A stretch of DNA of 64,000 nucleotides from the NCBI GenBank assembly GCA_930633495.1, contig CAKNFJ010000002.1:496001-560000 (forward strand). The letters run 5' to 3'. This DNA is from Hyphomicrobiales bacterium. Its GTDB lineage: Bacteria > Pseudomonadota > Alphaproteobacteria > Rhizobiales > Beijerinckiaceae. The position numbers and the translations under genes were made by a program. Below the pieces are notes generated by a model, which saw nothing but the letters and a program-made list of their open reading frames with translations, was not told where the DNA came from and made no database searches. This document shows, piece after piece, positions 4,819 to 53,411 of this stretch; the stretch's first letter is position 1; the number at the start of each line of letters is the position of its first letter.

Positions 4819-4823
4819 TCGCC

Positions 4824-6053: not shown

Positions 6054-6391
6054 TGTCCACGAGCAATCGCCACATCACTTGCGAAGCCTGCAACGACACG
6101 GGTTATCGCACCGTCCATTTTTCCTGCGGGACGCCGTGGCGAACCGACTGTGACCAGTGTGTCGCGGGCCGCCTCGCGCGGGCAAGGCGTGCGCGCCCCG
6201 TTCGTTCTGGTGCCACCGCGAAACGGAGTTCGCCTCTCATGCAAGTCGCCCCCTTCGCCGAGCACGTTCGTAACGCGCTTCGTCGCGAGCCGTCGATCGT
6301 CAGGATCCTCGAGGCTCACGACAAGGCAGTGATCGCCGGCTGCGTCGAGGCAGCCCTGACGGGACGTGTTGTCGGTCAGAGGTCGGCCTGA
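6050..6391 (+). CDS. Small zinc-ribbon protein fused to a DotB-derived segment
   Basis: The 113-residue protein starts within the dotB stop (ATGATG). The N-terminal part has paired cysteines CEAC (11-14) and CDQC (34-37), plus Cys26, suggesting zinc binding. Residues 71-107 (HVRNALRREPSIVRILEAHD then KAVIAGCVEAALTG) are plainly homologous to DotB residues 249-283, the Walker B region. The Walker A half is missing, so it cannot hydrolyse ATP alone. It probably arose by partial duplication of dotB next door. A regulator or dominant-negative partner of DotB is a possible role, as inference only. Confidence 0.75.
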   Translation: MMSTSNRHITCEACNDTGYRTVHFSCGTPWRTDCDQCVAGRLARARRARPVRSGATAKRSSPLMQVAPFAEHVRNALRREPSIVRILEAHDKAVIAGCVEAALTGRVVGQRSA

Positions 6392-6666
6392 TGGCTCACT
6401 GGCGCGAAACATCGAAGCCGGCGCGCTTCTGGAAGGTCGACGCCCGCGCGGGCGTCTTCGTTCTTTTCACCCTGATCCACTTTCGGGTCTGGACGGTCAC
6501 GCTGACGGCGGCGGTCCTGTTCCTGTTCTGGTTCCTTGAGCGACGCGGAATGTCGCTCGGATCTGCCTTCCGGGCCCTGCGGGCCTGGCTCATCGGGGAT
6601 CACCGCCCCGCTCTCGGCCGCTTCAAGGAACGCGGCCGCATCGATTTCCAACGCCGCCCGGACTGA
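6391..6666 (+). CDS. icmT: IcmT/TraK-like inner-membrane protein of type IVB secretion
   Basis: The 91-residue protein has the IcmT layout: MAHWRETSKPARFWKVDARA, then two hydrophobic segments (FVLFTLIHFRVWTVTLTAAV and LFLFWFLERRG), then a basic tail. IcmT is a small inner-membrane protein needed for Dot/Icm function, and TraK is its IncI counterpart. It follows traJ/dotB in IncI plasmids too. The ATG overlaps the previous stop by one base (TGATG), pointing to coupled translation. Confidence 0.85.
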   Translation: MAHWRETSKPARFWKVDARAGVFVLFTLIHFRVWTVTLTAAVLFLFWFLERRGMSLGSAFRALRAWLIGDHRPALGRFKERGRIDFQRRPD

Positions 6667-6683
6667 GGGCTAGAGAGGACACC

Positions 6684-7718
6684 ATGGCCAAGAATCCCTT
6701 CCTCGTCGCCATCGACGACGGCTACGCCCAGATCAAGATTTTCGGCTCGCCGCTCGATGGCAGCGAGCCCATCCGGAAGGTCTTCCGCACCTCCGTTCGC
6801 TCGGGGCGCCATCGCATCGCATCGATCGACGGCGGCGGCTTCGTCGACTGCTACCGCGCCGAAGAGGGTGACGAGTACACCGTCTCGGAGGAGGTCGAGT
6901 CCGAGAACACGCAGTTCGACAGCTTCCACACCTCGACGATGAACCGGGTGCTGGCACATCACGGCCTCGCGCTCGCTGGCTATCGCGATCGCAATGTCGA
7001 GCTGATCACCGGCCTGCCGGTTGCTGACTACTTCTCGCCGGACGGCGCGATCAACGAGGAGAAGATCCGCACGAAAACGGGCAACCTGCTGAAGGCGGTC
7101 GCCTCGATTTCTCCCGAGACGAAGCTCGCCCGCGTCGTCGGCGCCGATATCGGCTGCCAGGCGGTCGCGGCGCTTTTCGACTACGCGCTCGATGACAATC
7201 TGAAGCCGCGGCCTGGTGTCGATATCAGCGGCCCGGTCGCGATCGTCGACATCGGCGGGCGCACCACCGACATCGCCGTCATCTCCGGCGGCAGCAAGAT
7301 CGACACCAAGCGTTCTGGCACCTCGAACCTCGGTGTGCTGGACGTCTACAAGGGGCTGGAGCAGGCGCTGCACAAGAAGTTCGGCTTCCGCGACAGCCTG
7401 CCGATCAAAGATCTCGACCTGGCGATCCGCACGCACAAGATCCGCATGTGGAACAAGGTCGAGGAGATCGGGGACCTCGTGAAGGCGGCCGTGCGCGAGA
7501 TCGAGACGCAGATCGAGCGCGAGGTCGAGCGCAAGCTGTCCTCGGCCGCGACGATGAACGCTGTCGTGTTCGTCGGTGGCGGCGCCGCGCTCTTCCCGAA
7601 CGCGCCCAAGCAGCTGCGAAACGGCGTCACCGTGGAAGACCCGGAGTTCGCCAACGCGCGCGGTCTGTGGAAGTCCGCGCGCCTCCAGCAGCGCAAGCAG
7701 GGCCGCAACGCGGCCTGA
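6684..7718 (+). CDS. parM: ParM/StbA-like actin-type plasmid segregation ATPase
   Basis: The 344-residue protein has the actin-fold signatures: phosphate-1 loop FLVAIDDGYAQIKIF (6-20), phosphate-2 loop VAIVDIGGRTTDIAVI (185-200), and adenosine motif VVFVGGGAALF near 306-316. ANARGLWK near the C-terminus is typical of StbA/ParM. Such proteins polymerise and push plasmid copies apart, using a DNA-binding ParR and a parC site. A ribosome site (GAGAGGA) precedes the ATG, 17 bases after icmT. Its location within the transfer operon is unusual. The 21-bp iterons 4 kb upstream are a candidate parC. Confidence 0.88.
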   Translation: MAKNPFLVAIDDGYAQIKIFGSPLDGSEPIRKVFRTSVRSGRHRIASIDGGGFVDCYRAEEGDEYTVSEEVESENTQFDSFHTSTMNRVLAHHGLALAGYRDRNVELITGLPVADYFSPDGAINEEKIRTKTGNLLKAVASISPETKLARVVGADIGCQAVAALFDYALDDNLKPRPGVDISGPVAIVDIGGRTTDIAVISGGSKIDTKRSGTSNLGVLDVYKGLEQALHKKFGFRDSLPIKDLDLAIRTHKIRMWNKVEEIGDLVKAAVREIETQIEREVERKLSSAATMNAVVFVGGGAALFPNAPKQLRNGVTVEDPEFANARGLWKSARLQQRKQGRNAA

Positions 7719-7734
7719 TCGAGAAGGCAGTCTC

Positions 7735-8190
7735 TTGACCAAGCGGACCATCAACCGGAAGGCCCAGCGCGTCAGCGTCTACTTCTGGCCCAATGTCGAC
7801 GACGACAAGGCGGTCCTTGAGCTCGCCCAAGCCCTGTCGGCCGCCGGCAGGACTTCCGACATCATGCGCCAGGCCATCAAGCGTGGCCTGCGCGCCATGA
7901 TTGAGGCCGGCGACATGCCGCCGAGCCTGGTCGATCGTCTCAGCCTCAAGCGCCGTCTCAACGCTCGCGAGAAGACGGACGGGATCACCATCGTCCCGCT
8001 CCCGGCGAGCTACATGCCGGTTGCACAGCCCCAGCCTGCTATCACTCAGCCGGCTCCCGCGCCGTACGACGCCGTTTCGGTCGCGCCGACTGCAGAGCTC
8101 CCGCCCGAGCCTGCTTTCAACATCCTCGACAGCCTCGCGAACCTGATGCCGTCGAGCCGTGTCGAGCTTCCGCAGGACGCGGACACCTGA
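7735..8190 (+). CDS. parR: ParR/StbB-like DNA-binding partner of ParM
   Basis: The 151-residue protein starts at TTG 7735, preceded by GAGAAGG, 16 bases after parM. The N-terminal 55 residues have a ribbon-helix-helix pattern: RVSVYFWPN forms the strand and TSDIMRQAIKRGLRAMIEAG the helices. Residues 80-151 are a Pro/Ala-rich linker with a short hydrophobic end (FNILDSLANLM) that could contact ParM filaments, as ParR C-termini do. Identification rests on fold pattern and position after parM. Confidence 0.72.
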   Translation: MTKRTINRKAQRVSVYFWPNVDDDKAVLELAQALSAAGRTSDIMRQAIKRGLRAMIEAGDMPPSLVDRLSLKRRLNAREKTDGITIVPLPASYMPVAQPQPAITQPAPAPYDAVSVAPTAELPPEPAFNILDSLANLMPSSRVELPQDADT

Positions 8191-8192
8191 CC

Positions 8193-8221
8193 GGTCTCAG
8201 CGCCTCCCGGGCGTTGAGACC
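8193..8221 (+). terminator. Hairpin between parR and dotM
   Basis: GGTCTCAGCGCC (8193-8204) pairs with GGCGTTGAGACC (8210-8221) through 12 base pairs including one G-T pair, with a 5-base loop. No T-run follows. It may partly terminate transcription, stabilise the upstream message or set parMR apart from dotM. Confidence 0.5.
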
Positions 8222-8247
8222 CAGCACGAAATCCCCAGGAGAGACTG

Positions 8248-9390
8248 ATGGCAGCCCGCAACGACCAGACCGGCGGAAGTCATACCGAAGCCACCGGCAT
8301 CGTCGCGATCATCGTTATCTCGATGGTGCTGATCGGCATCTGGATGCTCGCCAAGCCAGCGATCATCTACCCGGCTTTCGCCATCAATTGGGTTCTGATC
8401 AAGCTCATCCAGCTCACGATGGGGCTCGGCCAGACCGGGCAGAACATCCTCGCCTTCATCGAGGCGACGCTGAAGGGCAATCAGGACCCCTGGCTGATCA
8501 GCTTTTCCGACTTCTACACCTTCAAGTCGCTGATCGGAGAGCGCGCGAAATACATCGTTGCGACGATCACCGGGTCTCTCGCCCTTGTGGTGATGTTCCG
8601 GATGAAAGGCGATGGGTTCAAGCGCAAGCTCAACTTGGTGACGCTGGCGCAGGACAACGCCCGCCATTGGCGCACGGCGCTCTTTAGCGCTCGCTTCGAC
8701 CCGAAGAAGCCTTGGACGGAGATGGCGCCTCAGCGCAAGCCCCACGACTGGCTCCTGGAGCGGAACATTGAGGTCGTCGACCGCAAGGTGAAGGATTACG
8801 CCAAGGCCGAGCAGGCGTTCATCGAACAGCTCGGTCTGCCGTGGCAGGGGATCGACAACCTCCCGCTCTACATGCAGTGCTTGGTCGCGATCATCGGGGC
8901 CCATTTCCATCTGCGCGGCAGCTCGGAGGCCGAGAAGCTTCGCGGCGACATCACCTACGTCTACGTCACCAAGGAAGGGGAGCAGCGGGACGAGGCGCTG
9001 AAGCTGCTGATCGACCCCTATCTGAAGAACCCGAAGATCCGCGAGCTCGTTGCCGAGCACACCGCGAACCATGCGTGGACCTCGACCGCGCTGATCCACC
9101 TGCTTTTCAAGGCCCGCGACGGCGCCGGCGTTCTGGCGACGAGCGATTTCCTTTGGCTGAAGCCGATCGATCGGAGCCTATATTACGTCCTGAACAACGT
9201 CGGACGGCGCAAATTCCACATCGAGGGCGCCGGCGCGATCTCGCACTATTGGCACGAGAATATCGCCCGCAAGCCGATCAGCGAGCCCAAAGTTGGCAAG
9301 GCCGTCGAGGGCATCACCCACTACATGGGTGAACGAGGCGTGGATGAGCTCAAGGTTCCGCCCAAAAAGGAGTTGAACGCCCGCTCGTAG
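8248..9390 (+). CDS. dotM: DotM/IcmP/TrbA-like type IVB coupling-complex protein
   Basis: The 380-residue protein has membrane segments at about 18-40, 45-70 and 105-125, then a long cytoplasmic domain. The diagnostic segment FLWLKPIDRSLYYVLNNVGR, followed by GAGAISHYWHE, matches the conserved DotM/IcmP/TrbA core. HANHAWTSTALIHLLF-type residues upstream also fit. DotM is part of the coupling complex with DotL and recruits substrates with acidic, Glu-rich C-termini. DotL itself is not in this window. GGAGA lies seven bases before the ATG. Confidence 0.93.
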   Translation: MAARNDQTGGSHTEATGIVAIIVISMVLIGIWMLAKPAIIYPAFAINWVLIKLIQLTMGLGQTGQNILAFIEATLKGNQDPWLISFSDFYTFKSLIGERAKYIVATITGSLALVVMFRMKGDGFKRKLNLVTLAQDNARHWRTALFSARFDPKKPWTEMAPQRKPHDWLLERNIEVVDRKVKDYAKAEQAFIEQLGLPWQGIDNLPLYMQCLVAIIGAHFHLRGSSEAEKLRGDITYVYVTKEGEQRDEALKLLIDPYLKNPKIRELVAEHTANHAWTSTALIHLLFKARDGAGVLATSDFLWLKPIDRSLYYVLNNVGRRKFHIEGAGAISHYWHENIARKPISEPKVGKAVEGITHYMGERGVDELKVPPKKELNARS

Positions 9391-9452
9391 GGCGTCACCA
9401 AGGATAGATAGTGCGATCCTTCAGATCGCGTCCGAATCGAACGGAGTCGCCG

Positions 9453-10442
9453 GTGTCCACCTCTCAGATCATCGAGCATGTTGCGGGCCAGCGCCTGACC
9501 ATCATCGAGGCCGACGGCCTTCCGGCAGTGTTCTCGGTCTCCGGCGCGGACGGTCAGTGGGCCGTCGTGAAGAACAAGGCCGGCGCCGAACAAAACGTCT
9601 TCAGCGGGCGTTCCGAGGCGGAGGCCGGCAAGACGCTCGACGGCATCGCCACCTTCCACGGCGGCTCGGCCGCACCGCAGAGCACCGAAAGCGCGCAGCC
9701 CACAGTCTCCATTGCCCAGCCGCTGAAAGCCTCCCGCTTCCCTCTGAAGGCGTCGACGGTGCTGCCGTGGGCCGCTGTGCTGATGCTCGGAGGCGTTCTG
9801 ATTGCTGATCGCGTCATGCCCCGACAGCCTGCCGCTATTGCGGTCGCGACGGCGCCCGAGGTCATGACCCAGGCCAGCGAGCCCCTGCAGCAGCTCCCCA
9901 CCACAATCGCCCGGGTCAAGACGCCGGCGCCGGCCATCCCCCCGCTTCCCGGTCAGCCGGCCGCTGCGACCGCTCCCGAAAAGCCCACAGAGCCTGCGAA
10001 GGCCGCGGCCGATGGAAAGGTCGATACCCAGACGATCGTCGACAGCGCCCGCAAGCTGGTCGCCGAGAAGGGTGCCGAGGGTGCGAGCGGCGAGATGCAG
10101 CAGCTCCAGGCGGTGCTCGACCTCCTGAACAGCAACGAGAAACTCACGCCGGAGCTGATCCGAAACGTGCCCCACGACCTCGCACAGAAGCTCAAGGAAG
10201 CGGGCGTCGTTGCGAGCCCTGAGGAGGCGGCTGCGGCAGCCAAGGCGCGCGGCCAGAAGGAGCTTCGCATCGTCCGACTCGACAGCCTGACCCTCGACAG
10301 GATGCGCGACAAGGACGGCGTCTCGACGGTCCCAGAGGCCGGCACCTGGGCGCTGACCAACAATTCGGTCGTGATCCCGCTTCCGGGCGGCGGCGATATC
10401 CGCCGCCCGGATGACCTGAAAACCTTCCACCTGGAGCCGTGA
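9453..10442 (+). CDS. Bitopic membrane protein in the transfer operon, unknown family
   Basis: The 329-residue protein starts at GTG 9453 with GGAG six bases upstream. Residues 1-65 are soluble and would be cytoplasmic. One membrane segment (LPWAAVLMLGGVLIADRVM, about 108-127) is followed by a Pro/Ala-rich stretch and a helical region. The end is GTWALTNNSVVIPLPGGGDI. Layout and position recall IncI TraP or DotF/IcmG, single-pass inner-membrane core proteins, but no clear motif was recognised. It probably works with the adjacent dotM. The family assignment is open. Confidence 0.75.
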   Translation: MSTSQIIEHVAGQRLTIIEADGLPAVFSVSGADGQWAVVKNKAGAEQNVFSGRSEAEAGKTLDGIATFHGGSAAPQSTESAQPTVSIAQPLKASRFPLKASTVLPWAAVLMLGGVLIADRVMPRQPAAIAVATAPEVMTQASEPLQQLPTTIARVKTPAPAIPPLPGQPAAATAPEKPTEPAKAAADGKVDTQTIVDSARKLVAEKGAEGASGEMQQLQAVLDLLNSNEKLTPELIRNVPHDLAQKLKEAGVVASPEEAAAAAKARGQKELRIVRLDSLTLDRMRDKDGVSTVPEAGTWALTNNSVVIPLPGGGDIRRPDDLKTFHLEP

Positions 10443-14074: not shown

Positions 14075-15148
14075 ATGGCCAAGATCGTCGCCTGGGCGGA
14101 CCACCGCTCCGCTGTCTTCGGACGGCGCAAGCGCGCCCGTCAGGAGCGCTGGCAGTTCATGCGCTCTTCGACCCCGGTTGAGATCCCGGTTGCCGAGGGT
14201 AACCCCATAAAGGCGCTGGAGCTGCAGTACGAGCGCCACACGGGTGAATGGGGCAAATCCCCGAAGCAGACTGTCTCGATCACTCTCGAAGGGCTCGATG
14301 GCGCCCTCCGCCGCGCCATGCGGCTTCAGGATCAGCGCCCGGTCACGCCCGACCTGCTTCACGACCCCAATGCATGGAGGTTCGAGAAATTCTGGCCCTT
14401 CGAGAAGCCGGTCGACCTCAAGGGCGACATTCTGCCCGATGAGGCCGTAGCGATCGCTCAGATGGCCGACATCTCGCGAGACGGGCGGGAATGGCAGCAG
14501 GCGAGGGCGGTTCGTGTCGCATCCGACCTGATGATGCGCGAGGGCAATCTCTGGAAGAGAGATCCCGAACCAGTCTGGCGAGTTGAGATGGTCGCCGGCA
14601 GGGGCGTTGTGGACTATGGGCGCGCCAACACGACGAAGACTGGCGCTTTCATCTTCCGGATCGACCAGCAGGCCGCGGCAAACGATCTCGCAAAGCAGCT
14701 CACGCTGAAAGGACGCCCCAAACTCAACTCGATGCGCCTGGCTCATGTCGACCCGGCCTACCTCACGGTCCCGGAAGCGGGCGCGACGCTCGAAACTGCG
14801 GCAATGGCGCTGCGCTCGAACCTTCGCAGGCTCATGAGCCACAAGAAGGTCGCCGAGGAGCTCAAGCCCTTCGAGCAGTCCCTGGTGAGCGCCTGGGCCA
14901 GCGGCGACACCGCAGATGTGATCGCCGCGCTTCAGACGCTCCTGCGGGTGTATGACGGCGTCTACGACCCTCGCTACGACGAGCGGAACGCGCATTCACC
15001 GTCCGAGGCTCTGTGCAGCTGGAGTGTCCTGCTGCAGATCGGGCTGGAGGCCAATCTCATCCCGTCGGCGCTCCCCGGCGAGACAACCATCGGTCGGCTC
15101 GATGAGGTTGCAGACGACGGCTTGGCCGAGCTCGGCATGGACCTGTGA
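14075..15148 (+). CDS. Unknown protein, distant member of the cassette family
   Basis: The start at ATG 14075 has GGGAG eight bases upstream (357 residues); a GTG at 13994 in the same frame is possible. Two local patterns match the proteins at 46660-48896 and 51304-53411: LMMREGNLWKRDPEPVWRVE (equivalent to the DDRV...PPAI region) and FIFRIDQQAAANDLAKQL (equivalent to FAFDIGRYEQALDFVALI). The end ADDGLAELGMDL resembles DDPELANLGL. These similarities are weak but occur in the same order. Function is unknown. Confidence 0.7.
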   Translation: MAKIVAWADHRSAVFGRRKRARQERWQFMRSSTPVEIPVAEGNPIKALELQYERHTGEWGKSPKQTVSITLEGLDGALRRAMRLQDQRPVTPDLLHDPNAWRFEKFWPFEKPVDLKGDILPDEAVAIAQMADISRDGREWQQARAVRVASDLMMREGNLWKRDPEPVWRVEMVAGRGVVDYGRANTTKTGAFIFRIDQQAAANDLAKQLTLKGRPKLNSMRLAHVDPAYLTVPEAGATLETAAMALRSNLRRLMSHKKVAEELKPFEQSLVSAWASGDTADVIAALQTLLRVYDGVYDPRYDERNAHSPSEALCSWSVLLQIGLEANLIPSALPGETTIGRLDEVADDGLAELGMDL

Positions 15149-41792: not shown

Positions 41793-42923
41793 ATGAAACC
41801 GCCTGTCCTGCTCTCGCGCGACGAATTCAGCGCTGCCGTCCTTGCAAGGACCGGTGGCTGCTGCTGCGCGCCTGGGTGCCGGGAAGCAGCCACGGCCGCG
41901 CACCACATCATCGAGCGCCGGCTCTTCACTGATGGCGGCTACTATCTCGAAAACGGCGCACCCCTGTGCGACGAGCACCATCTCGCCGCCGAGTACACGA
42001 CTATCTCGCCCAGCGAGCTCCGCGCGTGGCTCGGCATCAAGCGCCTGGTGCAGCCGCCGCAGTTCGAAGACGACGAAATCGTCGATAAATGGGGCAACCC
42101 GATCCTGGCGAATGGATCCCGCCTTCGGGGCGAGCTCTTCGACGAGGAGCCGGTTCAGAAAGCGCTGGCCGCTGGCGGTGTACTCAGCCTGTTTCGGACG
42201 CATGTGAAGCATCCGAAGACCTGGCACATGCCTGGGTCGCCCGGGCTTGGCCGCGGCGACCGCATGCTCAAGGACCTCGGCACCTTCGAGGGCGAACGGA
42301 TCATCATGACCGAAAAGCGGGACGGCGAGTGCAGCTCGCTCTATCGGGACCATACGCATGCCCGATCCCTAGACAGCCGGCACCATCCGTCCCGCGACTG
42401 GCTCCGGGCATATTGGAGCGCCATCCGCTGGGATATCCCAGAGCTGTGGCGTGTGGTGGGCGAGGGGACCTATGCGAGGCACTCGATCGCCTACGCGGAT
42501 CTGCCGTCCTTCTTCGAGGGCTTTGGGCTCTGGAACGAGCGCAATTTCTGCCTGAGTTGGGACGAGACGCTCGAATGGTTCGACCTGATCGGCAGCAGCG
42601 CCGGGCTTTCGATCAAGCCTGTCCCGGTGATCTATGATGGCCCGTACAACCCAGAAGCCATCGAGGAAGCCTGGCAGGCCTATCTCGACCGCGACGTCGC
42701 CCAGGCTGAAGCCACCGGCCGGCCGCTACAGCTTCGCGAGGGCTACGTGATCCGGACCGCCGCTGGCTTCGCCTACCGGGACTTCCGAAAGCATGTCGCC
42801 AAGTGGGTGCGACCGAACCATGTGAACACCAGCGAGCACTGGATGCATGCGGAGATCACGCCGAACGAGCTGGCTGACGATCGCGAGGAAGGGCCGGCGC
42901 GCCTGCCAGGAGTGAGACTTTGA
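41793..42923 (+). CDS. HNH endonuclease-RNA ligase fusion
   Basis: The 376-residue protein has an N-terminal HNH-like zinc part (CCCAPGC at 23-29, HHIIER at 37-42, CDEHH at 59-63). An RNA ligase domain then starts at about 133. Ligase motif I is TEKRDGE, giving nucleophile Lys175; motif III is GEGTYARHSIAY, motif IV REGYVIR, motif V AKWVR. HARSLDSRHHPSRDW is typical of the DRB0094-type RNA ligases. It could cut and rejoin RNA or repair host RNA damage. The next gene starts within its stop codon. It ends DDREEGPARLPGVRL. Confidence 0.85.
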   Translation: MKPPVLLSRDEFSAAVLARTGGCCCAPGCREAATAAHHIIERRLFTDGGYYLENGAPLCDEHHLAAEYTTISPSELRAWLGIKRLVQPPQFEDDEIVDKWGNPILANGSRLRGELFDEEPVQKALAAGGVLSLFRTHVKHPKTWHMPGSPGLGRGDRMLKDLGTFEGERIIMTEKRDGECSSLYRDHTHARSLDSRHHPSRDWLRAYWSAIRWDIPELWRVVGEGTYARHSIAYADLPSFFEGFGLWNERNFCLSWDETLEWFDLIGSSAGLSIKPVPVIYDGPYNPEAIEEAWQAYLDRDVAQAEATGRPLQLREGYVIRTAAGFAYRDFRKHVAKWVRPNHVNTSEHWMHAEITPNELADDREEGPARLPGVRL

Positions 42924-44347
42924 GTAAATCGGGCGACCCGTCTTCGGACATTTTCCGCGCCTCCACCGCCGATCTGGAATATTTATTCACCGGATCGGGA
43001 GAGCGTGTCGACGTCGAGCACAAGGCCTGGATGAATGTCGCGGAAAAGGCAGTGAGGGCGGATTTGGCTCAGCATATCGCCGCGCTAGCCAATCACGGAG
43101 GAGGATACCTTGTTTTCGGAATCGAGAACGGAACCTGCCGGCTCTTAGGGCCACCACCCGCTGACCACGCCACAGTAACCCAGGATCGCATCGCAGAAAT
43201 AGTCAGGACCTATCTCGACCCTCCCGTCCAAGTACACGTTCGGTCGGTCGAAAAGGATGGCGTTCGATACCCGGTGGTCCAAATTGAGTCTCATAAGGCA
43301 CGACCTGTCATCGGCAAGAAGGGCGGAGAGACTCCTAAGGGTGAGAAGCCAAAGGGAATTGTGCCTGGTCGCATCTATATCCGTGCCGTGGGCCCAAGCA
43401 GCACCGAGATTCAGACCTCCGAACAGTGGTCGGAACTCCTCGATCGGTGCTTGCTCCACCGAGGCGACTACCTCGCCACTATCATGAGGCAAAGCCTCTC
43501 AAAGCCTGCCGAAACCCACCACCAAGTGATGGATCGCCTCAAGCGATCGGTAGACGCGACCTCCGAGTGCTACGCAGAGCAGTTCCTCAACCTAGCCCCA
43601 CGCGCCGACCTCGTTGGGGAGGTTTCTGATGAGGGCGAGGGAGGCTTTGCGCTGGGGTACGCGCTCATCGATGGGGACGGCCGCTCACTTGAGCTGGCCG
43701 GCCTTCATGGCCTCATTAATCGCGCCGCGCTCGGGATGGAGAGGTACGCGTCGAATGGCTGGTATGCTTTCTTCCCAAGGGCTGTTCAAGCCGGCACTGA
43801 AGGGCCGGGCACGCAAGAATCTACCTACCTTGAAAGCCGTCGCCTGAACCGCGAAATGCTCGCTTTCAGCCACGACTATTGGCGCCTTTACCATTCCGGC
43901 GTCGGCGTGTGGACTGACATTTATCGGGAGGATTTAGATCGCTCCAACACGCAATCCCCCTACCTTGTTCTCGCTTTCATCGTCCTTCGCCTCCACTCCA
44001 TCCTCGCGCACGCTCGGTTCATTGGGCAGCAGACGCCGGGTGTAATGCGGGTTCTCGTTCGTCAGGACTGGCAGGGGCTTCGCGGCCGGATACTCAGCCT
44101 TGAGAAAGGGCACATGCTTGCGAAGCAACCATGCGTCGAGGATCGCTTCACGAAAACGATGAGCTTCCTATGGTCGGAGCTGAGGGACGATTATTTTTCT
44201 GTGCTGCTAAAGTCATGCCTCTCGTTCCTTGATGTGTTCTCATTCGATGGCTGGAGCGACACTCCGGAGGGTTGGCTGACGCGAGAATACATCGAACGTG
44301 AGTTGGCCAAGTTCGAGACAGGCCGGGTACAGATCTTCGAGAACTGA
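42920..44347 (+). CDS. Schlafen/AlbA_2-domain protein
   Basis: The protein starts at TTG 42920 overlapping the previous stop (TTGA), with AGGAG seven bases upstream; 475 residues. The N-terminal domain has DVEHKAWM, then ADLAQHIAALANHGGGYLVF, the AlbA_2/Schlafen signature (E-x-K and ALAN..GG.L.FGI). The C-terminal 300 residues are helical and unrecognised. Third-position GC is lower than in neighbours, suggesting recent transfer. AlbA_2 proteins bind nucleic acid and occur in defence loci. Coupling to an RNA ligase is suggestive. Confidence 0.82.
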   Translation: MSKSGDPSSDIFRASTADLEYLFTGSGERVDVEHKAWMNVAEKAVRADLAQHIAALANHGGGYLVFGIENGTCRLLGPPPADHATVTQDRIAEIVRTYLDPPVQVHVRSVEKDGVRYPVVQIESHKARPVIGKKGGETPKGEKPKGIVPGRIYIRAVGPSSTEIQTSEQWSELLDRCLLHRGDYLATIMRQSLSKPAETHHQVMDRLKRSVDATSECYAEQFLNLAPRADLVGEVSDEGEGGFALGYALIDGDGRSLELAGLHGLINRAALGMERYASNGWYAFFPRAVQAGTEGPGTQESTYLESRRLNREMLAFSHDYWRLYHSGVGVWTDIYREDLDRSNTQSPYLVLAFIVLRLHSILAHARFIGQQTPGVMRVLVRQDWQGLRGRILSLEKGHMLAKQPCVEDRFTKTMSFLWSELRDDYFSVLLKSCLSFLDVFSFDGWSDTPEGWLTREYIERELAKFETGRVQIFEN

Positions 44348-46659: not shown

Positions 46660-47844
46660 ATGCGCTTCGACGTCCCATTTGCCTATGAGCTCGCCTATCT
46701 GAAGCCTCGGGGCCGAGTGCCGAAGACGGTCCTCATGAAGGACAGCGTCACCGTCGAGATCGCAGCGTATGGCGAGGCTGATGCGCCCGTCGTCATCGCA
46801 GGGTGTTTCAAGGCCGCCGAGCGGCTCCCCGGCCCGACTATGAGGCAACATCAGCCTTTCGAACGCCGCCTGGTGGGCGATCGCCTCTTCGAGGTCATGC
46901 ACGTCCACGCCACGCCGGCGATGTCCGCCTATGAGCACCAAGAGCAGGACCGTCGCGAAGGCTGGGATTGGACCCAAGGCTACACCGGGGATGCCCTGCG
47001 CAGGCGGCTCTACAATCCCGAGAACACGGCGAAGCTCCTCGCTGGCCTGACCGGCAGCGATGATTTGTACAAGCCGAAGATCCTCGACGAGCGGCCCGCG
47101 GGTATCGAACGGATCGTCCATGACGGCCGCGATGCGATGGCCCAGATGGTCCGCGACGCTTTCACCCGCCTCGTTCTGGTCGACGACCGGGTCCACTTCC
47201 AGACGCTCCCGCCGGCGATCGGGATCTCGACGACGGCGGCGCTGCAATGCCCGCTCGGCGAACGCGACTCCAAGATCAAGCTGGAGGCCTTCCATCGCTC
47301 CAGCCTCCCGGTTGCGACGAACCTGGATTTCGCCTTCGACATTGGCCGCTACGAGCAGGCCCTCGACTTCGTCGCCCTTATCGACCGCAAGGCGAAGTCG
47401 GCGATGCCTGGGATCGATGTCGAGATCCTCAATCGGCTGTCACCACAGATCGACCTCTATGATGTCACCCCGAGCTTTCCCGAGGCACGGGTCGCGGCAC
47501 TTGCCGCCATCAATCGCACCATGGACATGCTTCTCGGCCGGCTCGGTGGACCGTTCGTTGGCTCCGCGAACCTCTCGCCGGAAGCGCTGAGGCTCGGCGC
47601 CGAGCTGGCCCAGGCCCGCAACGACATCATCTCCGGCAACAGCTACGCGCCCGACCGCGCTGCTCGCCTGCTGGAGAAGGCCGCGGAGCAGCACTGGAAC
47701 GGCTACAGCGCCCATCACCGGCTGTTTTCCAGCTTCGCCCACCTGCGCGCGGATCTGACGACCGCCGCCGTCGATCAAGCCTGCCTTGAGGCCGCGCTCG
47801 TCGAGGGCGAAGAGCCTGACCTCGCTCACCTGGTGCCGATGTGA
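46660..47844 (+). CDS. Cassette family protein A (copy 1)
   Basis: The 394-residue protein has no recognised domain. GGAAGGAATC precedes the ATG. Its first 60 residues are strand-rich (MRFDVPFAYELAYLKPRG). The central segment VLVDDRVHFQTLPPAIGIST aligns with FSDDRVWGAAPPPAIIVK of the protein encoded at 52362-53411. The next motif FAFDIGRYEQALDFVALI is shared across all family members. The end is GEEPDLAHLVPM. Its stop overlaps the start of the B gene (ATGA), so both are made together. The role is unknown. Confidence 0.72.
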   Translation: MRFDVPFAYELAYLKPRGRVPKTVLMKDSVTVEIAAYGEADAPVVIAGCFKAAERLPGPTMRQHQPFERRLVGDRLFEVMHVHATPAMSAYEHQEQDRREGWDWTQGYTGDALRRRLYNPENTAKLLAGLTGSDDLYKPKILDERPAGIERIVHDGRDAMAQMVRDAFTRLVLVDDRVHFQTLPPAIGISTTAALQCPLGERDSKIKLEAFHRSSLPVATNLDFAFDIGRYEQALDFVALIDRKAKSAMPGIDVEILNRLSPQIDLYDVTPSFPEARVAALAAINRTMDMLLGRLGGPFVGSANLSPEALRLGAELAQARNDIISGNSYAPDRAARLLEKAAEQHWNGYSAHHRLFSSFAHLRADLTTAAVDQACLEAALVEGEEPDLAHLVPM

Positions 47845-48896
47845 AGATCTCGATCCCTGCCATTTATCACGTCGAATGCGACATCCGGAACGGCCGCTAT
47901 CCGCGTACCTATGCAATCCGGGAGGTGTTCGACGTCGAGATCGATGAAGCTGCTTCCGACGAGGCGCCTGAAGTCATCCGCGGCGCCTATCTTCCGAGTC
48001 ATCGGGACGGACGGGTCGAATTCTCTCGCCGGCTTCACGGTCTTCACCTCTTTCAATGCCTGGACTGGACCCGATCTGGTTCCGGAGCGGCGACCTCGTA
48101 CCTGAGTAACGTCATCGAGCGAGACTTCCCCGGTCAGCTCCCCGACGATGACGACGAGGTGCTCGGTGTCCTTCCTGCGAAGGCACGCCAGATCCACAGC
48201 AACACACGCGACGGCGTGGAAGCGCTGCTCCTCAAGACGGCGAGCGAGCTGCTGCTCGTCGATGGTGTCCTGCATACCCGCGCGCCCGCGCCCTCAGTCA
48301 GCGTCGAGCTGCGAGGCGGGGCATTCCTGGCCTCCGGCGGTCTGGATCCCCGTGGCGAGATCACTCTCGGCCTGCCAAAGGGTGACACGACCGAGCGCGT
48401 GACCTTCCTCTTCGATGTCGCCCACCAAGAACAGGCCAAGGATCTCGCGCTGCTTGCGGAGAACCTCGTTCCGAAGGCCACGTTGACGGAAAACGCTCGG
48501 ATCGAAATCGACCGGTATGACGTGCCGGCATCCATCCACCAGGCGCGGCACGCAATCGGGGCAGCGCTTGCCGAATTTGAGGTTCGTCTGAAGTCAGCTC
48601 CCATGAAGCCGCCGAGGTTTCCAGGTGAAGTGAGGGGGCCTGCGGATCCTGAAGCAAGCAAGGAAGTCGTTCGCCTTCGTCGATTGTTGGCGATGGAGAA
48701 CCGGGAACCGGATTCCCTGTTGCAGCAAGCCAAGGACCTGCTCGACAGTGTCACAGCCTCTGGCAACTTCAGCCGTGACCAGCTGACGGTGGTATCTCGG
48801 ATTTTCACGCTCGCCGAATTCGCGTCCGAGAACAGCCCGGACGACCTTTCCCTGGTTTCCGCGAACGACCCCGAGCTCGCCAGCTTTAATTTCTGA
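47841..48896 (+). CDS. Cassette family protein B (copy 1)
   Basis: The 351-residue protein has a strand-rich start (MKISIPAIYHVECDIRNGRY). The segment LLVDGVLHTRAPAPSVSVEL aligns with IGIEGHLYIQAQAPSLDI of the copy-2 B protein, then FLFDVAHQEQAKDLALLA follows. The C-terminus NDPELASFNF matches DDPELANLGL of copy 2. A helical region lies at 260-330. Start ATG overlaps the A stop. It is a new family to me; a structural or translocated role is only a guess. Confidence 0.75.
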   Translation: MKISIPAIYHVECDIRNGRYPRTYAIREVFDVEIDEAASDEAPEVIRGAYLPSHRDGRVEFSRRLHGLHLFQCLDWTRSGSGAATSYLSNVIERDFPGQLPDDDDEVLGVLPAKARQIHSNTRDGVEALLLKTASELLLVDGVLHTRAPAPSVSVELRGGAFLASGGLDPRGEITLGLPKGDTTERVTFLFDVAHQEQAKDLALLAENLVPKATLTENARIEIDRYDVPASIHQARHAIGAALAEFEVRLKSAPMKPPRFPGEVRGPADPEASKEVVRLRRLLAMENREPDSLLQQAKDLLDSVTASGNFSRDQLTVVSRIFTLAEFASENSPDDLSLVSANDPELASFNF

Positions 48897-48904
48897 AGGC
48901 GGCC

Positions 48905-49357
48905 ATGATCGACAAGCTCCTCGTGACCGGAGTCTCCGAAGAGTGGCGGCATGGCCGCTGCTACCCGATGGCCTCCGCGCTCGGCGATCTGCTGGCCTGG
49001 CCCGTCGTCACGCTGACGGTTTCGACCCGCTCCGATCGCTCACCCTCGGGCTGGCGTGAGCACGTTGTCCACGCCTGGGTTCGCAGCCCTGACGGCGAGG
49101 GCTTCGACGCGGCCGGCTTCTTCGACGAGAGCGGTGTGCAGTCAGCCTTTCTCGCCAACGCGGGAGCTGCGTGGCGTGACGCCCGTCTCATCGAGCACGC
49201 GGATTCGACAGTGTTCCTCTCTCACTTGGCTGAATGCTTCCCCGAGGCGGCGGATCCGATCCACCGGAGCCAATTCGAAGCGCTTTGCGACCAAGCTCGC
49301 GAACTCGCGCAGGAGCATCTCCTCCATCTCGCGATGCCAGCCCTCACGCCAGCGTGA
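48905..49357 (+). CDS. Putative Cys-His-Asp protein following the cassette
   Basis: The 150-residue protein starts nine bases after the B gene. RHGRCYPMASALGDLLAWPV, EHVVHAWVRSPDGEGFDAAG show Cys, His and Asp in the order of papain-like folds (C19, H in HAWV, D in FDAAG). Similar small proteins of phages and plasmids have G.C...A.AL..... followed by H..V..PDG...D..G. Peptidase or transferase activity is inference. The C-terminal 50 residues are helical. Probably the third gene of the copy-1 operon. Confidence 0.62.
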   Translation: MIDKLLVTGVSEEWRHGRCYPMASALGDLLAWPVVTLTVSTRSDRSPSGWREHVVHAWVRSPDGEGFDAAGFFDESGVQSAFLANAGAAWRDARLIEHADSTVFLSHLAECFPEAADPIHRSQFEALCDQARELAQEHLLHLAMPALTPA

Positions 49358-49473
49358 CCGGGCCATCCTCCGAAATCTTCATGCCCGCAATGGATAGCGG
49401 CCAGGAGCATGAGTGATCCATTCTTCGACACGGATCCGAATGGATTCGATGCGCTATCCTTGAAGGACCGCCC

Positions 49474-50112
49474 ATGACCATTTCAGTTCTCACCCGCCGC
49501 GGCGCGATCGCCGGCATCACCGCTGCGCTCACCGCGTCCGCGACCCTCGTCCGCGCCGACGACCCGCCGGCGGTCACGCTCGACAAGCTCCTGGAGCCGA
49601 CCGACGTGCCTGATCTCTGGATCGGCGATCCGTCGGCCAAGGTCACGATCGTCGAATACGCCTCGCTCACCTGCACGCACTGCGCGCGCTTCCACGAGGA
49701 CGTCTGGCCGGAGCTCCGGAAGCGCTATGTCGACACCGGCAAGGTCCGCTTCGTGCTGCGGGAATTCCCGCTCGACCCGCTTAGCCTCGCGGCGTTCATG
49801 TTGGCGCGCGCAGCAGGGGCTGACCGTGAGAAGTTCGTCGACGCTTTCTTCCGCAAGCAGGCCCAGTGGGCGTTCAATGGCCGTCCGCTCGACACGATGC
49901 CGGTCCTGACCGCCGAGCTCGGCATGAAGCGCGAGGAATTCGACGCCGTCCTGAAGAACGAGGCGCTCCTTACCAGCATCAGCCAGGTCCGCGTTCGCGC
50001 CCAGTCCCAGTTCGCCGTCAACTCAACGCCGACCTTCTTCGTCGGCACCGAGCGGCTCATCGGCGCCCGCCCGATCGCGAATTTCGAAACGGCGATCGCT
50101 GCGCAGGGCTGA
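49474..50112 (+). CDS. DsbA-family thiol oxidoreductase, exported
   Basis: The 212-residue protein has a signal peptide with twin Arg (TRRGAIAGITAALTASATLV). The thioredoxin fold has active site CTHC (67-70) in VEYASLTCTHCARFHEDVWP and cis-Pro motif NSTPTFFVG. DsbA-like proteins form disulfides in the periplasm; on conjugative elements they often serve pilus or channel proteins. GAAGGA precedes the ATG. PilS and other exported proteins here have cysteine pairs that could be its clients. Confidence 0.9.
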   Translation: MTISVLTRRGAIAGITAALTASATLVRADDPPAVTLDKLLEPTDVPDLWIGDPSAKVTIVEYASLTCTHCARFHEDVWPELRKRYVDTGKVRFVLREFPLDPLSLAAFMLARAAGADREKFVDAFFRKQAQWAFNGRPLDTMPVLTAELGMKREEFDAVLKNEALLTSISQVRVRAQSQFAVNSTPTFFVGTERLIGARPIANFETAIAAQG

Positions 50113-50116
50113 GCCC

Positions 50117-51043
50117 TCACCGGCCGCTGGCGACGGCGGCCGGCTTGCACGCGCTCTCGTCCTGCGCGAATGGCAGCTTTGCCTCGCGCAGGAACTTCAT
50201 GGCGACCGGGGTCGATAGCGCATAGGACTGGGAGCCGCGGATAAAGGTGTTCACGCCGACAACGCGGCCGCAGCTGTCAATCAGCGGCCCACCGGAATTC
50301 CCCTTCGCCAGCACCGCTGCGTGACGGATCAGCTCGACGCCAGTCTGGGACATCTCGATGGCGCCCGTCATACCCTGGCTGAGTGTCAGGGTCGGGATCG
50401 TGAAATCTCCAACCTGCGCGCGCCTCCAGAAGCCTTCAGGCCCGATTGCCTTGCCGGGGAAGCCGGCCGCGATCACCGAGTCACTGCCTGGCCGGGCGAA
50501 TTTCAGGATTTCGACCCCATCAACCGGGCTCACCCAGAGCGCCGCCAGGTCTGGATTCCCGACGACGTGATCAGGGGTCATGGCTGCGACCTGGGCAACC
50601 AGCGGCAACCGCGACTCGCTCGACAGCACCATGATCGTCTGCGGAGAGCCCTCGATGACGTGCCGGTTGGTGACGACCAAGTTAGGAGCCACGAAAAATC
50701 CGGATCCCTCTGCGACGTTTCGGTCGTGGCGCGCGAGGATCATTACCGTCGCCTTGCGCAGCCGGCTCGGCAGCTCCTTGTCCTCCGACGGGATCGGGCC
50801 GTAGCGGAACTGGGTCATGCGCGCCTCAGCGACGGCCGCAACGTCCGCGGCCGACAGCTTCGTGCGCCCAAGCTCATAGCGCAGGTAATCCCGATCCGAT
50901 GCGGTCAGCTTCGCCAGGTCGCAGGTCTTCGCCTGGCGCAGGCACGGCAGCAGAGCCTGTCGATAGGCTTCGATCGGAGCGAGCTGCGCCTGCGCCGCTG
51001 TGATGCCAGCAAAAGCAAGGACGGAAGCGAGGAATCTTCTCAT
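50117..51043 (-). CDS. Exported trypsin-like serine protease
   Basis: The 308-residue protein has a signal peptide (MRRFLASVLAFAGITAAQAQ). The catalytic triad is His128 in VVTNRHVIEG, Asp165 in NPDLAALW and Ser250 in LAKGNSGGPL. Residues 20-90 are a pro-like helical region with two cysteines. There is no PDZ domain. It converges with the DsbA-like gene, four bases apart. It could process periplasmic transfer proteins, as inference. Confidence 0.9.
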   Translation of the reverse strand: MRRFLASVLAFAGITAAQAQLAPIEAYRQALLPCLRQAKTCDLAKLTASDRDYLRYELGRTKLSAADVAAVAEARMTQFRYGPIPSEDKELPSRLRKATVMILARHDRNVAEGSGFFVAPNLVVTNRHVIEGSPQTIMVLSSESRLPLVAQVAAMTPDHVVGNPDLAALWVSPVDGVEILKFARPGSDSVIAAGFPGKAIGPEGFWRRAQVGDFTIPTLTLSQGMTGAIEMSQTGVELIRHAAVLAKGNSGGPLIDSCGRVVGVNTFIRGSQSYALSTPVAMKFLREAKLPFAQDESACKPAAVASGR

Positions 51044-51111
51044 CCCGATATGATCGCCGGGCTTCAGCGCGGGCGCAATCGTCCAGCAGGTTTGCGTGCT
51101 ACCTTGGCCGC

Positions 51112-51300
51112 ATGAAACTGCCGATGAAGCAACTCCCTCCCTCGCGACGAAAGCTCTTCAAATGGGCTGTCATAGGCCTGGTCGCCGTGGGCGCGGCCTA
51201 TCTCGCTCTTGTCGCACTTGCGGTGCTCACCGACTTCGCCGACATCCCTTGCCAGGACGGGCGCTGGGACGCCGCGAAGAAGTCCTGTGTCCCGACCTGA
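51112..51300 (+). CDS. Small single-pass membrane protein
   Basis: The 62-residue protein has a basic start (KQLPPSRRKLFKWAVIG), one membrane helix (VIGLVAVGAAYLALVALAVL) and a short outer tail with two cysteines (IPCQDGRWDAAKKSC). The tail might form a disulfide. It ends three bases before the convergent B gene. Function unknown. Confidence 0.55.
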   Translation: MKLPMKQLPPSRRKLFKWAVIGLVAVGAAYLALVALAVLTDFADIPCQDGRWDAAKKSCVPT

Positions 51301-51303
51301 GGG

Positions 51304-52365
51304 CTAGAGCCCAAGGTTCGCCAGCTCTGGATCGTCGCCGAACTCAACCACTGGACGGGCCGGCAGATCGCGAGACATCGAAAGCGCGTCCTTCGTCATG
51401 TCCGCAGCCTTCGCGACCCGGTCGAAGATGCGGGGCGCCAGCGAGGGCGTGTAGAACCGGTTCGCGATGGCGTCATCGATCTCGTCGATGATCGCCCAAA
51501 CCGCATCGCCACCGCCCGCTTCGACCATGTTGTCGCGGTAGGTGAGCAATCGCCCCAACTGCTCAATTCCAGCCGCCGAGAGATCCGCTAGCGTCTCCTG
51601 GAGATCGATCTCAATGGTCCGCACGCCCATGTAGGCGTTGGGAACAGACTCATCACGCGCGAGCAGGTCGGGCCTGTCGACGCGATAGCTGCTGAACTCC
51701 ACCGGCGGCGGGTGGAAGCCGTGCCGGGCGGCGAACGCCATCGCCTCATCAATGCGATCCAGCGCGAACGCGTAGCCATGGCTGAAATAGCCGGGAGCGA
51801 GATCAGCTTGCTCGCTCACCTTGATCCTGCCCGGGCTGGTTCCTGTCTTCGTGGGTGGGCAGATGTCGAGGGACGGCGCCTGCGCCTGGATATAGAGATG
51901 CCCCTCGATGCCAATGATGCGATCGATGGCATTCTGCGCGCGGGCGAAGGCCTGCTCCGTGTGGTCCGCGACAACAGCCCGGGTATCGAGCGGCAGGACG
52001 TCGTAGACCCGGCAATTCCAATCCCAGAACGGGTCGGCCACTTTCAGGCAATGCGACATGCCATCCGAAAGGAGCCTCCGTGCGTCCGCGACAGGCGAAG
52101 TGATCCCCTCCCAAGCTCTTTCCTGCACCGGGCGAACCAGGACCTCCTTCCCGCCGGACTGCACGACCCTTCGCTCGAACAGGTCGCCGCGAGGCTTGTC
52201 GATGGTGCGCATCCGGAGCGCGATCGGTGCTTCATCGAAGCTCTCGATCAGCTTGATCTCGCCGGCGAGTGGGGAGCTCACAAAAATCCTTTCGGGCTTC
52301 TTCGCCCGGCCGCGCAGGATTTTGTACGGCACCTTGACCGTGATGTTGATCGGGATCGTTTTCAT
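51304..52365 (-). CDS. Cassette family protein B (copy 2)
   Basis: The 353-residue protein starts within the A stop (ATGA at 52362-52365). MKTIPINITVKVPYKILRG starts a strand-rich domain. IIGIEGHLYIQAQAPSLDI aligns with the copy-1 B segment LVDGVLHTRAPAPSVSVEL. The family motif YAFALDRIDEAMAFAARH follows, and the tail is FGDDPELANLGL. Gene order and coupling are the same as at 46660-48896. Function unknown. Confidence 0.75.
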   Translation of the reverse strand: MKTIPINITVKVPYKILRGRAKKPERIFVSSPLAGEIKLIESFDEAPIALRMRTIDKPRGDLFERRVVQSGGKEVLVRPVQERAWEGITSPVADARRLLSDGMSHCLKVADPFWDWNCRVYDVLPLDTRAVVADHTEQAFARAQNAIDRIIGIEGHLYIQAQAPSLDICPPTKTGTSPGRIKVSEQADLAPGYFSHGYAFALDRIDEAMAFAARHGFHPPPVEFSSYRVDRPDLLARDESVPNAYMGVRTIEIDLQETLADLSAAGIEQLGRLLTYRDNMVEAGGGDAVWAIIDEIDDAIANRFYTPSLAPRIFDRVAKAADMTKDALSMSRDLPARPVVEFGDDPELANLGL

Positions 52366-53411
52366 GGGCGCGCCACCATGGTCGAGGCTGGGGCCGGCGC
52401 CGGCAGCGAAACCTGAAACGCTCCTTCCGCAAGCACGAGCGACTTCTCCAGAAAGCGCCTGCGCTTGTCCGTAAACTCTTCGTAGGCGCTGAATCGGTTG
52501 CGCCCCAGGTCATTGAAAGCGCGCAAGAGCCGCTTTGCTCCCTCCGGCTCTCCCGCGAGGGCCGCCTCGCGAAGCTTGGCGAGCTCAATCAGCGGCGCTC
52601 GCCCTTCCTCGCCGATGACGGCGAAGCGCTCTTTCAAGCTGTTGAGCAGCATGCGCACGCCGGCCGCAACATTGGCGGATTGCTCATCGAAGAGGATCAC
52701 GCTCTCGTTGATGGTGTCGATATCGAGCTTGCGCACATAGTTGTCCGAGAGTCGCCGGTCGTTCTTGTCGATGTTGGCGTATTCGGTGAGGAACTTGTCC
52801 GCGACATCCAGGCGCGTCAGGCCGAACGAAAACTCGCTCCGGTCGGGCCCGAGCTCGCTGACGCTGAGCTCGCTCCACCCCATCCGCTCTCCACCCTGGT
52901 TATAGGCGGGGTAGACCGGGTGCTTCACGATGATCGCGGGCGGTGGTGCTGCACCCCAAACCCGATCATCGCTGAACAGCGTTTCGGCTTCGACGACGTT
53001 CTCGATCTGGGCGACATATCCATCGGCTAGAGCTTTTTGCTCGGGCGAGGCATCCTTGTACCGCACCGCCGATTTCTTGGCCGCAGCGGTGATGTCGTGG
53101 ACCCCACGCGCCGCGAGCGCGGCGATGACGTAATCACTGGCTGCCTTGGACATCGAGGCAGCAGCGTTGCGACCGGCGGCTTCCTCAATACGCAGGGGCC
53201 GAAACAGCGTCTCGTCGACGAGAAGGCGCTCGTAATTCTCAATCAGCTCGAACTGGCCCATGCGAACCAGCGCTTTTGCGCGCAAAGCGACGTCGCCGGT
53301 CTTCTCCGGCAGATTGATCTCCAGCGGGACGACGACACCGGGCTGATCGGTCCGAGCTGATTGAGCGACCGTGAAGGTGATTTTGAGCTTCGGCGCCACC
53401 GCTGATTCCAT
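52362..53411 (-). CDS. Cassette family protein A (copy 2)
   Basis: ATG 53411 gives 349 residues; the same frame is open about 20 codons further upstream. It starts MESAVAPKLKITFTVAQSAR. LFSDDRVWGAAPPPAIIVKH aligns with the DDRV...PPAI segment of the copy-1 A protein, and FSFGLTRLDVADKFLTEY is the shared motif. The tail is VSLPAPAPASTMVARP. No clear ribosome site was seen, so the start is uncertain. It is divergent from the RpfF-like gene 168 bases away. Confidence 0.7.
   Translation of the reverse strand: MESAVAPKLKITFTVAQSARTDQPGVVVPLEINLPEKTGDVALRAKALVRMGQFELIENYERLLVDETLFRPLRIEEAAGRNAAASMSKAASDYVIAALAARGVHDITAAAKKSAVRYKDASPEQKALADGYVAQIENVVEAETLFSDDRVWGAAPPPAIIVKHPVYPAYNQGGERMGWSELSVSELGPDRSEFSFGLTRLDVADKFLTEYANIDKNDRRLSDNYVRKLDIDTINESVILFDEQSANVAAGVRMLLNSLKERFAVIGEEGRAPLIELAKLREAALAGEPEGAKRLLRAFNDLGRNRFSAYEEFTDKRRRFLEKSLVLAEGAFQVSLPAPAPASTMVARP

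What the first reader, a model, noticed from the sequence alone, without database searches (positions are those of the whole stretch)
46660..53411. Undescribed two-gene cassette present twice, with coupled translation
Genes A-B at 46660-48896 and at 53411-51304 show the same order and the same ATGA overlap. A proteins share DDRV...PPAI; B proteins share G.L(H/Y).(R/Q)A.APS and end in NDPELASFNF or DDPELANLGL. All four contain (F/Y).F......(A)..(F/L). A further gene at 14075-15148 has the same motifs in the same order. I recognise no known domain. Coupling suggests an A-B complex, and retention of two diverged copies suggests different partners or targets.
Basis: partly seen in the sequence, partly recalled or inferred. 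Interest (0 to 1): 0.85.

Follow-up and report, generated by a model that had tools for sequence, protein, structure and literature searches.

The report
Giant paralogous family on Bosea megaplasmids
The two gene pairs are visible members of an undescribed, fast-changing protein family that fills about five percent of a giant Bosea plasmid with some thirty distinct copies, most of them with counterparts in related plasmids, and whose job is unknown.

Summary
The window lies on a 758,792-bp replicon of a Bosea species. Profile searches from each of the five proteins converge on one family: 31 copies here and 34 each on pANAM02 and the Bosea sp. RAC05 plasmid (99 in all). They form 42 lineages, 24 kept one-to-one in all three plasmids. 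Adjacent copies are translationally coupled far more often than other neighbours (28 of 40 against 197 of 972). Most end in an acidic-hydrophobic tail (like DDPELANLGL) that is rare in other plasmid proteins (57 of 95 against 20 of 2,016). They diverge fast (31% median identity to RAC05 orthologues, others 51%) but under purifying selection. No convincing Pfam, NCBIfam, PHROG, PADLOC or PDB match was found; relatives of B1 carry a Pfam tag, PF27633, whose name I could not see. Orphan relatives occur in Bosea genomes in which no type IVB system was found. A-A and B-B kinship is not shown: each A resembles its own B. I favour hetero-oligomers with a shared docking tail; the target is unknown.

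The parts
46660..47844 (+). A1, family member, 394 aa, tail EEPDLAHLVPM
   Evidence: ORF; leave-out hhalign 99.6; orthologues in pANAM02 (76%) and RAC05 (27%)
47841..47844 (+). four-base GTGA stop/start overlap of A1 and B1
   Evidence: sequence
47841..48896 (+). B1, family member, 351 aa (GTG start)
   Evidence: ORF; leave-out hhalign 99.5; close relatives P0002-P0004 tagged PF27633
48864..48893 (+). C-terminal tail of B1, NDPELASFNF
   Evidence: translation; strict motif match
51304..52365 (-). B2, family member, 353 aa
   Evidence: ORF; leave-out hhalign 99.8; relatives P0005-P0008
51307..51336 (-). C-terminal tail of B2, DDPELANLGL
   Evidence: translation; strict motif match
52362..52365 (-). 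four-base ATGA stop/start overlap of A2 and B2
   Evidence: sequence
52362..53411 (-). A2, family member, 349 aa (longest frame to 53471); no acidic tail, ends STMVARP
   Evidence: ORF; leave-out hhalign 98.5; tail motif absent
14075..15148 (+). C, stand-alone family member, 357 aa (longest frame from 13994), ends ADDGLAELGMDL (loose motif only)
   Evidence: translation; leave-out hhalign 99.3; orthologues in pANAM02 and RAC05

Best explanation
The genes belong to one large paralogous family that is part of the backbone of 0.7-0.76 Mb Bosea megaplasmids (shown). Runs of two to four paralogues are translated as coupled units, so that unlike but homologous subunits co-fold into hetero-oligomers (inferred). 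The body, modelled with low confidence as an N-terminal beta-rich part and a C-terminal helical bundle, diverges fast and gives each complex its own partner or target (inferred). The acidic-hydrophobic tail on most subunits is a docking peptide for a site common to all the complexes, on a partner subunit or on one plasmid-encoded hub (inferred). The set acts inside the cell for the megaplasmid itself rather than as secreted cargo (inferred).
For: Family and extent: jackhmmer from five seeds converges on 95 ORFs; four more by orthology and profile make 31, 34 and 34; an independent genome scan finds 28, 31 and 31, all on those replicons (at most 31 candidates scored per genome). Backbone: 24 of 42 lineages are in all three plasmids; 6 of 6 adjacent pairs with both RAC05 orthologues are adjacent there too. 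Coupling: 28 of 40 against 197 of 972, Fisher p 5.5e-11. Tail: medium motif 57 of 95 against 20 of 2,016; own-tail shuffles give 4.5 on average; over 22 own-RAC05 orthologue pairs the loose motif is in both for 14, in neither for 4, in one for 4. Constraint: median dN/dS 0.137 over 28 pairs. Intracellular: 3 of 95 have a 19-residue hydropathy window above 1.6.
Against: No complex, hub or target was seen. Residue by residue the tail is not better conserved than the body (26% against 33% over 22 pairs), so only its pattern is kept. About a quarter of members lack even the loose tail (70 of 95 have it). Many members stand alone: 11 of 18 runs here were single genes. Both structure models are poor (pLDDT 55 and 60) and say nothing about oligomers. 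No shared upstream motif was found.
Confidence: 0.38

Rival explanations
1. Defence or anti-defence repertoire: each run is a module against a different phage or host system, and diversity is the point.
For: Faster divergence than other plasmid genes (median 31% against 51% identity to RAC05; dN/dS 0.137 against 0.089, p 0.00085). Orphan relatives lie beside large serine recombinases in 3 of 8 loci, next to a TIR-domain gene (L126) and near an AAA_21 ATPase (L128), and within 10 kb of an AAA-M41 protease in 4 of 8.
Against: No PADLOC match beyond noise in 63 members. Defence genes usually turn over, whereas 24 of 42 lineages are kept one-to-one. No recurrent partner family was seen beside the plasmid runs.
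Confidence: 0.22
2. Substrates of the plasmid's type IVB (Dot/Icm-like, IncI-type) machine, with the acidic-hydrophobic tail as C-terminal transfer signal.
For: The 3 of 67 Bosea genomes with DotH are those with 28 or more copies. DotM_C and T4SS_TraI domains are in the window. Known Dot/Icm signals are C-terminal and acidic (recalled).
Against: The tail is rare in other plasmid proteins (3 strict matches in 2,016), so it is not a general signal of this machine. Five Bosea genomes with an orphan copy show no DotH. Of 30 genomes with DotH among 397 of the family, only G000 and G015 showed the family (at most five candidates scored per genome). Coupled homologous subunits would be unusual for effectors.
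Confidence: 0.14
3. Parts of one large multi-subunit assembly (a shell, filament or replication/partition scaffold) built from about thirty unlike homologous subunits.
For: Stable one-to-one retention of many paralogues and conserved gene order.
Against: Genes are scattered in 19 runs rather than one operon, divergence is fast, and copy number differs (31, 34, 34). No structural match to a shell or scaffold protein stood out.
Confidence: 0.13
4. Mere gene-family drift: tandem duplicates on a roomy replicon with no special function.
For: Fast divergence; some lineages are confined to one plasmid (7 RAC05 only, 1 own, 1 pANAM02).
Against: dN/dS 0.137 over 28 pairs, 24 lineages kept in all three plasmids, conserved synteny, and a retained tail pattern.
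Confidence: 0.08

Closest known systems
Pfam PF27633
   Same: Precomputed tag on P0002 (99% to B1), P0003 and P0004, so at least the B1 lineage is catalogued as a family
   Different: The model is not in the Pfam copy here, no paper in the library names it, and the B2 relatives and P0009 carry no tag, so it seems to cover one lineage, not the superfamily
Dot/Icm-type (type IVB) substrates
   Same: C-terminal acidic-hydrophobic tail; a type IVB system is on the same replicon
   Different: Tail nearly confined to this family; homologous, translationally coupled subunits; orphans in genomes without a DotH hit
Lineage-specific paralogue expansions of mobile elements, as reviewed for toxin-antitoxin systems (PMC2701414, seen in the search listing only)
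   Same: Many divergent copies of two-gene modules on large replicons
   Different: Both partners are homologous to each other, about 350 aa, and the lineages are largely kept one-to-one

Membership tests
Pfam PF27633 | score over the curated cut-off of the model | not testable with these tools
   model absent from the local library; B1 itself matched nothing in the local Pfam at E 1; the tag was seen only on database relatives of B1
Type IVB (Dot/Icm-like) secreted substrates | transfer signal shared with other substrates of the same machine | tested here: inconclusive
   tail rare in other plasmid proteins, 3 strict and 20 medium of 2,016; which plasmid proteins are transferred is unknown
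Type IVB (Dot/Icm-like) secreted substrates | present only with a type IVB system | tested here: not met
   5 of 67 Bosea genomes have one family match and no DotH match
Known anti-phage defence families (PADLOC 2.0.0) | profile match | tested here: not met
   63 members scanned; two families, one member each, best E 0.033
Known phage protein families (PHROGs) | profile match | tested here: not met
   63 members scanned; six families, one member each, best E 0.013
Four-helix-bundle proteins (Avd/S23, invertase-inhibitor or YicC helical domains) | same fold in the C-terminal part | tested here: inconclusive
Toxin-antitoxin modules | small unrelated toxin and antitoxin | tested here: not met
   the two products are homologous to each other (A1-B1 97.3, A2-B2 95.6) and about 350 aa

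The most novel reading that the evidence does not exclude
A previously undescribed plasmid system: some thirty homologous, translationally coupled subunits, nearly all assembled into unlike hetero-oligomers that share one docking tail and one cellular hub, so that a conjugative megaplasmid runs many parallel specificities from a single scaffold family.
Probability: 0.3. Interest if true: 0.85.

Novelty: categorically new. Interest (0 to 1): 0.66.

Why it matters
About five percent of each of three megaplasmids (4.7, 5.6 and 5.5 percent of bases) encodes one family that annotation calls hypothetical. In the pANAM02 stretches that I read, its members are listed as hypothetical protein. In a mechanical BLAST clustering it is by far the largest paralogous group of these replicons (67 linked proteins, next 16). 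That so many paralogues are retained one-to-one, yet diverge faster than the rest of the backbone, means that something strong and specific keeps them. The runs are compact and can be deleted and tagged, so what a megaplasmid needs thirty versions of one protein for is directly testable. If the tail is a docking peptide, it offers a handle to fish out the hub.

Tried and rejected
Known domains: hmmscan of the five proteins against PHROGs, Pfam and NCBIfam and of 63 members against Pfam, PHROGs and PADLOC gave only scattered single-member matches, best E 0.013 or weaker. A PDB profile search gave four chains, best E 0.53.

Structure: two AlphaFold2 jobs on 11-row alignments gave low confidence (B2: pLDDT 55.2, pTM 0.51; B1: 59.9, pTM 0.43; only about the first 150 residues of B1 are mostly above 70). 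Foldseek gave nothing at E 0.001 in PDB or BFVD; VIA-align rows fall mainly on the helical C-terminal part. The beta-rich N-terminal part is barely tested.

Reach: B1 in 50,697 phage records, no match. IMG/VR, three scans, none confirmed. Genome contigs, two scans, none confirmed; the tool warns that near relatives may be left out. Three searches of 5.8 billion proteins gave 3, 4 and 4 hits; the first and third scored a capped candidate list. Class and order scans each gave the own genome and one marginal match (6.7e-5 and 5.3e-4) that I did not count. Of nine matching genomes in the family scan two are marginal: G212 was not confirmed by my profile (E 0.22), G306 was not followed.

AAA-M41 protease as hub: it lies within 10 kb of 4 of 8 orphans and 21 kb from a fifth. 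The plasmid copy at C2:400524-402386 was the only non-family ORF with the strict tail. I rejected it as a conclusion: the other plasmid AAA-M41 genes lack the tail, and shared mobile islands explain the neighbourhood. Co-regulation: upstream k-mers of 38 runs (of 57) against 1,365 other genes gave nothing that stands out after the number of tests, except one 8-mer seen three times. Printed work: PF27633, Bosea megaplasmid, strain names and related terms found no account of this family (listings only, no paper opened).

Full report
Where it is. The window is G000:C2:496001-560000, and C2 is 758,792 bp long. The best matching plasmid is pANAM02 of Bosea sp. ANAM02 (81% over 68% of a 12-kb query), with a short match to the Bosea sp. 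RAC05 plasmid NZ_CP016463.1. Two same-genus genomes, G028 and G015, carry contigs of exactly those lengths, 692,187 and 708,738 bp, and hit positions agree, so I treat them as those plasmids.

The observation. All five frames exist as described, the quoted motifs are there, and both pairs overlap by four bases; the first overlap is GTGA and not ATGA. A1 and B1 are visibly homologous by BLAST (E 3e-10).

One family, not a cassette present twice. Jackhmmer on all ORFs of at least 120 aa from the three replicons (5,122 ORFs), run from each of the five proteins, converges on the same set: 95 ORFs at E below 1e-3 from at least one seed. Testing 536 orthologue groups against a profile of 94 members gave probability above 90 for 42 of 42 family groups and at most 7.4 for 494 others. 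The 42 are partly inside the profile, so the leave-out tests matter more: 99.6, 99.5, 98.5, 99.8 and 99.3 for A1, B1, A2, B2 and C. One group with no member in the profile scored 98.5. Adding its partner group's new members gives 99 proteins: 31 here, 34 on pANAM02, 34 on the RAC05 plasmid. An interim note of mine gives slightly other counts; one search replaces them. Direct pairwise comparison is weak between most of the five: they are tied together through the rest of the family.

Architecture and evolution. There are 42 lineages: 24 in all three plasmids, 6 in own and pANAM02, 3 in pANAM02 and RAC05, and 9 in one plasmid only. Six of six adjacent pairs testable against RAC05 are adjacent there too, and for 18 of 22 own-RAC05 orthologue pairs at least one non-family neighbour is conserved as well. 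Median identity of own-RAC05 orthologues is 30.8% for 22 family pairs against 50.9% for 310 others. Median dN/dS between own and pANAM02 is 0.137 for 28 family pairs against 0.089 for 368 others. So the family is constrained but faster than the backbone around it. A quick tree of 94 members recovers many of the own-pANAM02-RAC05 triplets but leaves deep branching open: 26 of 91 inner branches are open and long branches meet. It cannot say whether A1-B1 and A2-B2 arose by one block duplication; neither clade is rejected.

Coupling. Of 40 same-strand neighbours within the family, 28 have a four-base ATGA, GTGA or TTGA overlap in frame with the next gene, against 197 of 972 other neighbours. Gene starts in the background were picked mechanically, but the test uses only the upstream stop and the frame of the next gene.

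The tail. A strict pattern fits 32 of 95 members against 3 of 2,016 other genes, a medium one 57 against 20, a loose one 70 against 97. Shuffling each tail gives means of 0.2, 4.5 and 17. Two of the 20 medium matches outside are members found later. Among eight orphan relatives the medium pattern fits three. The exact letters are not conserved more than the body (26% against 33% over 22 pairs). A2 lacks the tail, as does its RAC05 orthologue by eye. This looks like a short linear motif carried by most but not all subunits, which is inference.

Distribution. In 67 genomes of the genus, eight match: three with 28, 31 and 31 matches, all on the megaplasmid contigs, and five with one (G013, G032, G049, G058, G066; at most 31 candidates scored per genome). 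In the wider family 9 of 397 matched, two of them marginal. In 72,556 plasmids two other members found only the two Bosea records. One lineage was also found on a contig of 775,331 bp, so further megaplasmids of this sort probably exist. Orphans are in genomes without a DotH hit, 3 of 8 beside large serine recombinases and 4 of 8 within 10 kb of an AAA-M41 protease. One own-only member at C2:375681-376583 is the best plasmid match of four orphans, so it may have come from such an island.

What it is likely to do. Nothing here shows a function. Coupled, homologous, unlike subunits point to hetero-oligomers. A tail pattern kept while the letters change points to docking. Fast bodies point to many partners or targets. 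The type IVB system shares the replicon, but the family is neither tied to it in the orphans nor found, as far as could see, in 28 other genomes of the family that have DotH. I therefore put secretion below an internal role, with defence or anti-defence as the strongest rival.

Novelty. No library searched holds a convincing match. One lineage bears a Pfam number that I could not read. I found no paper on the family. I call it categorically new as a system, with the caution that a better fold model could tie it to something known.

Noticed in passing
window 3718-10442: Type IVB transfer and partition genes: T4SS_TraI domain (3718-4818), ParM-like actin (6684-7718), DotM C-terminal domain (8248-9390). 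DotH lies far away at C2:721716-722426.
   Followed up: partly
window 41793-44347: RNA ligase gene followed with a four-base overlap by a Schlafen AlbA_2 gene. pANAM02 has its RNA ligase here too, followed by a type II Cas9 gene on the other strand, next to the A1 orthologue.
   Followed up: no
window 48905-49357: 150-aa gene 8 bases downstream of B1, kept in pANAM02; Cys, His and Asp in a GRCYPMA...HAWV...DAAG arrangement recall a transglutaminase-like fold (recalled; no Pfam match).
   Followed up: no
window 49474-51043: DsbA-like thioredoxin and trypsin-like protease between the two pairs; both have orthologues near the A1 orthologue in RAC05.
   Followed up: no
C2:493502-495611 of the own genome (just left of the window): AAA ATPase gene directly upstream of a family member, kept in pANAM02 and nearby in RAC05.
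   Followed up: partly
L126, L148, L129, L130: Divergent AAA-M41 (FtsH-like) proteases recur near orphan family genes; the close subgroup (E below 1e-150) is in 9 of 67 Bosea genomes, once on the window's own plasmid at C2:400524-402386.
   Followed up: partly
P0003 and pANAM02 B1 orthologue (L072:1623-2768): P0003 repeats a stretch around FSRRLHGLHLFE as DLSRRDHGLHLFE, which may explain the longer 381-aa B1 of pANAM02.
   Followed up: no
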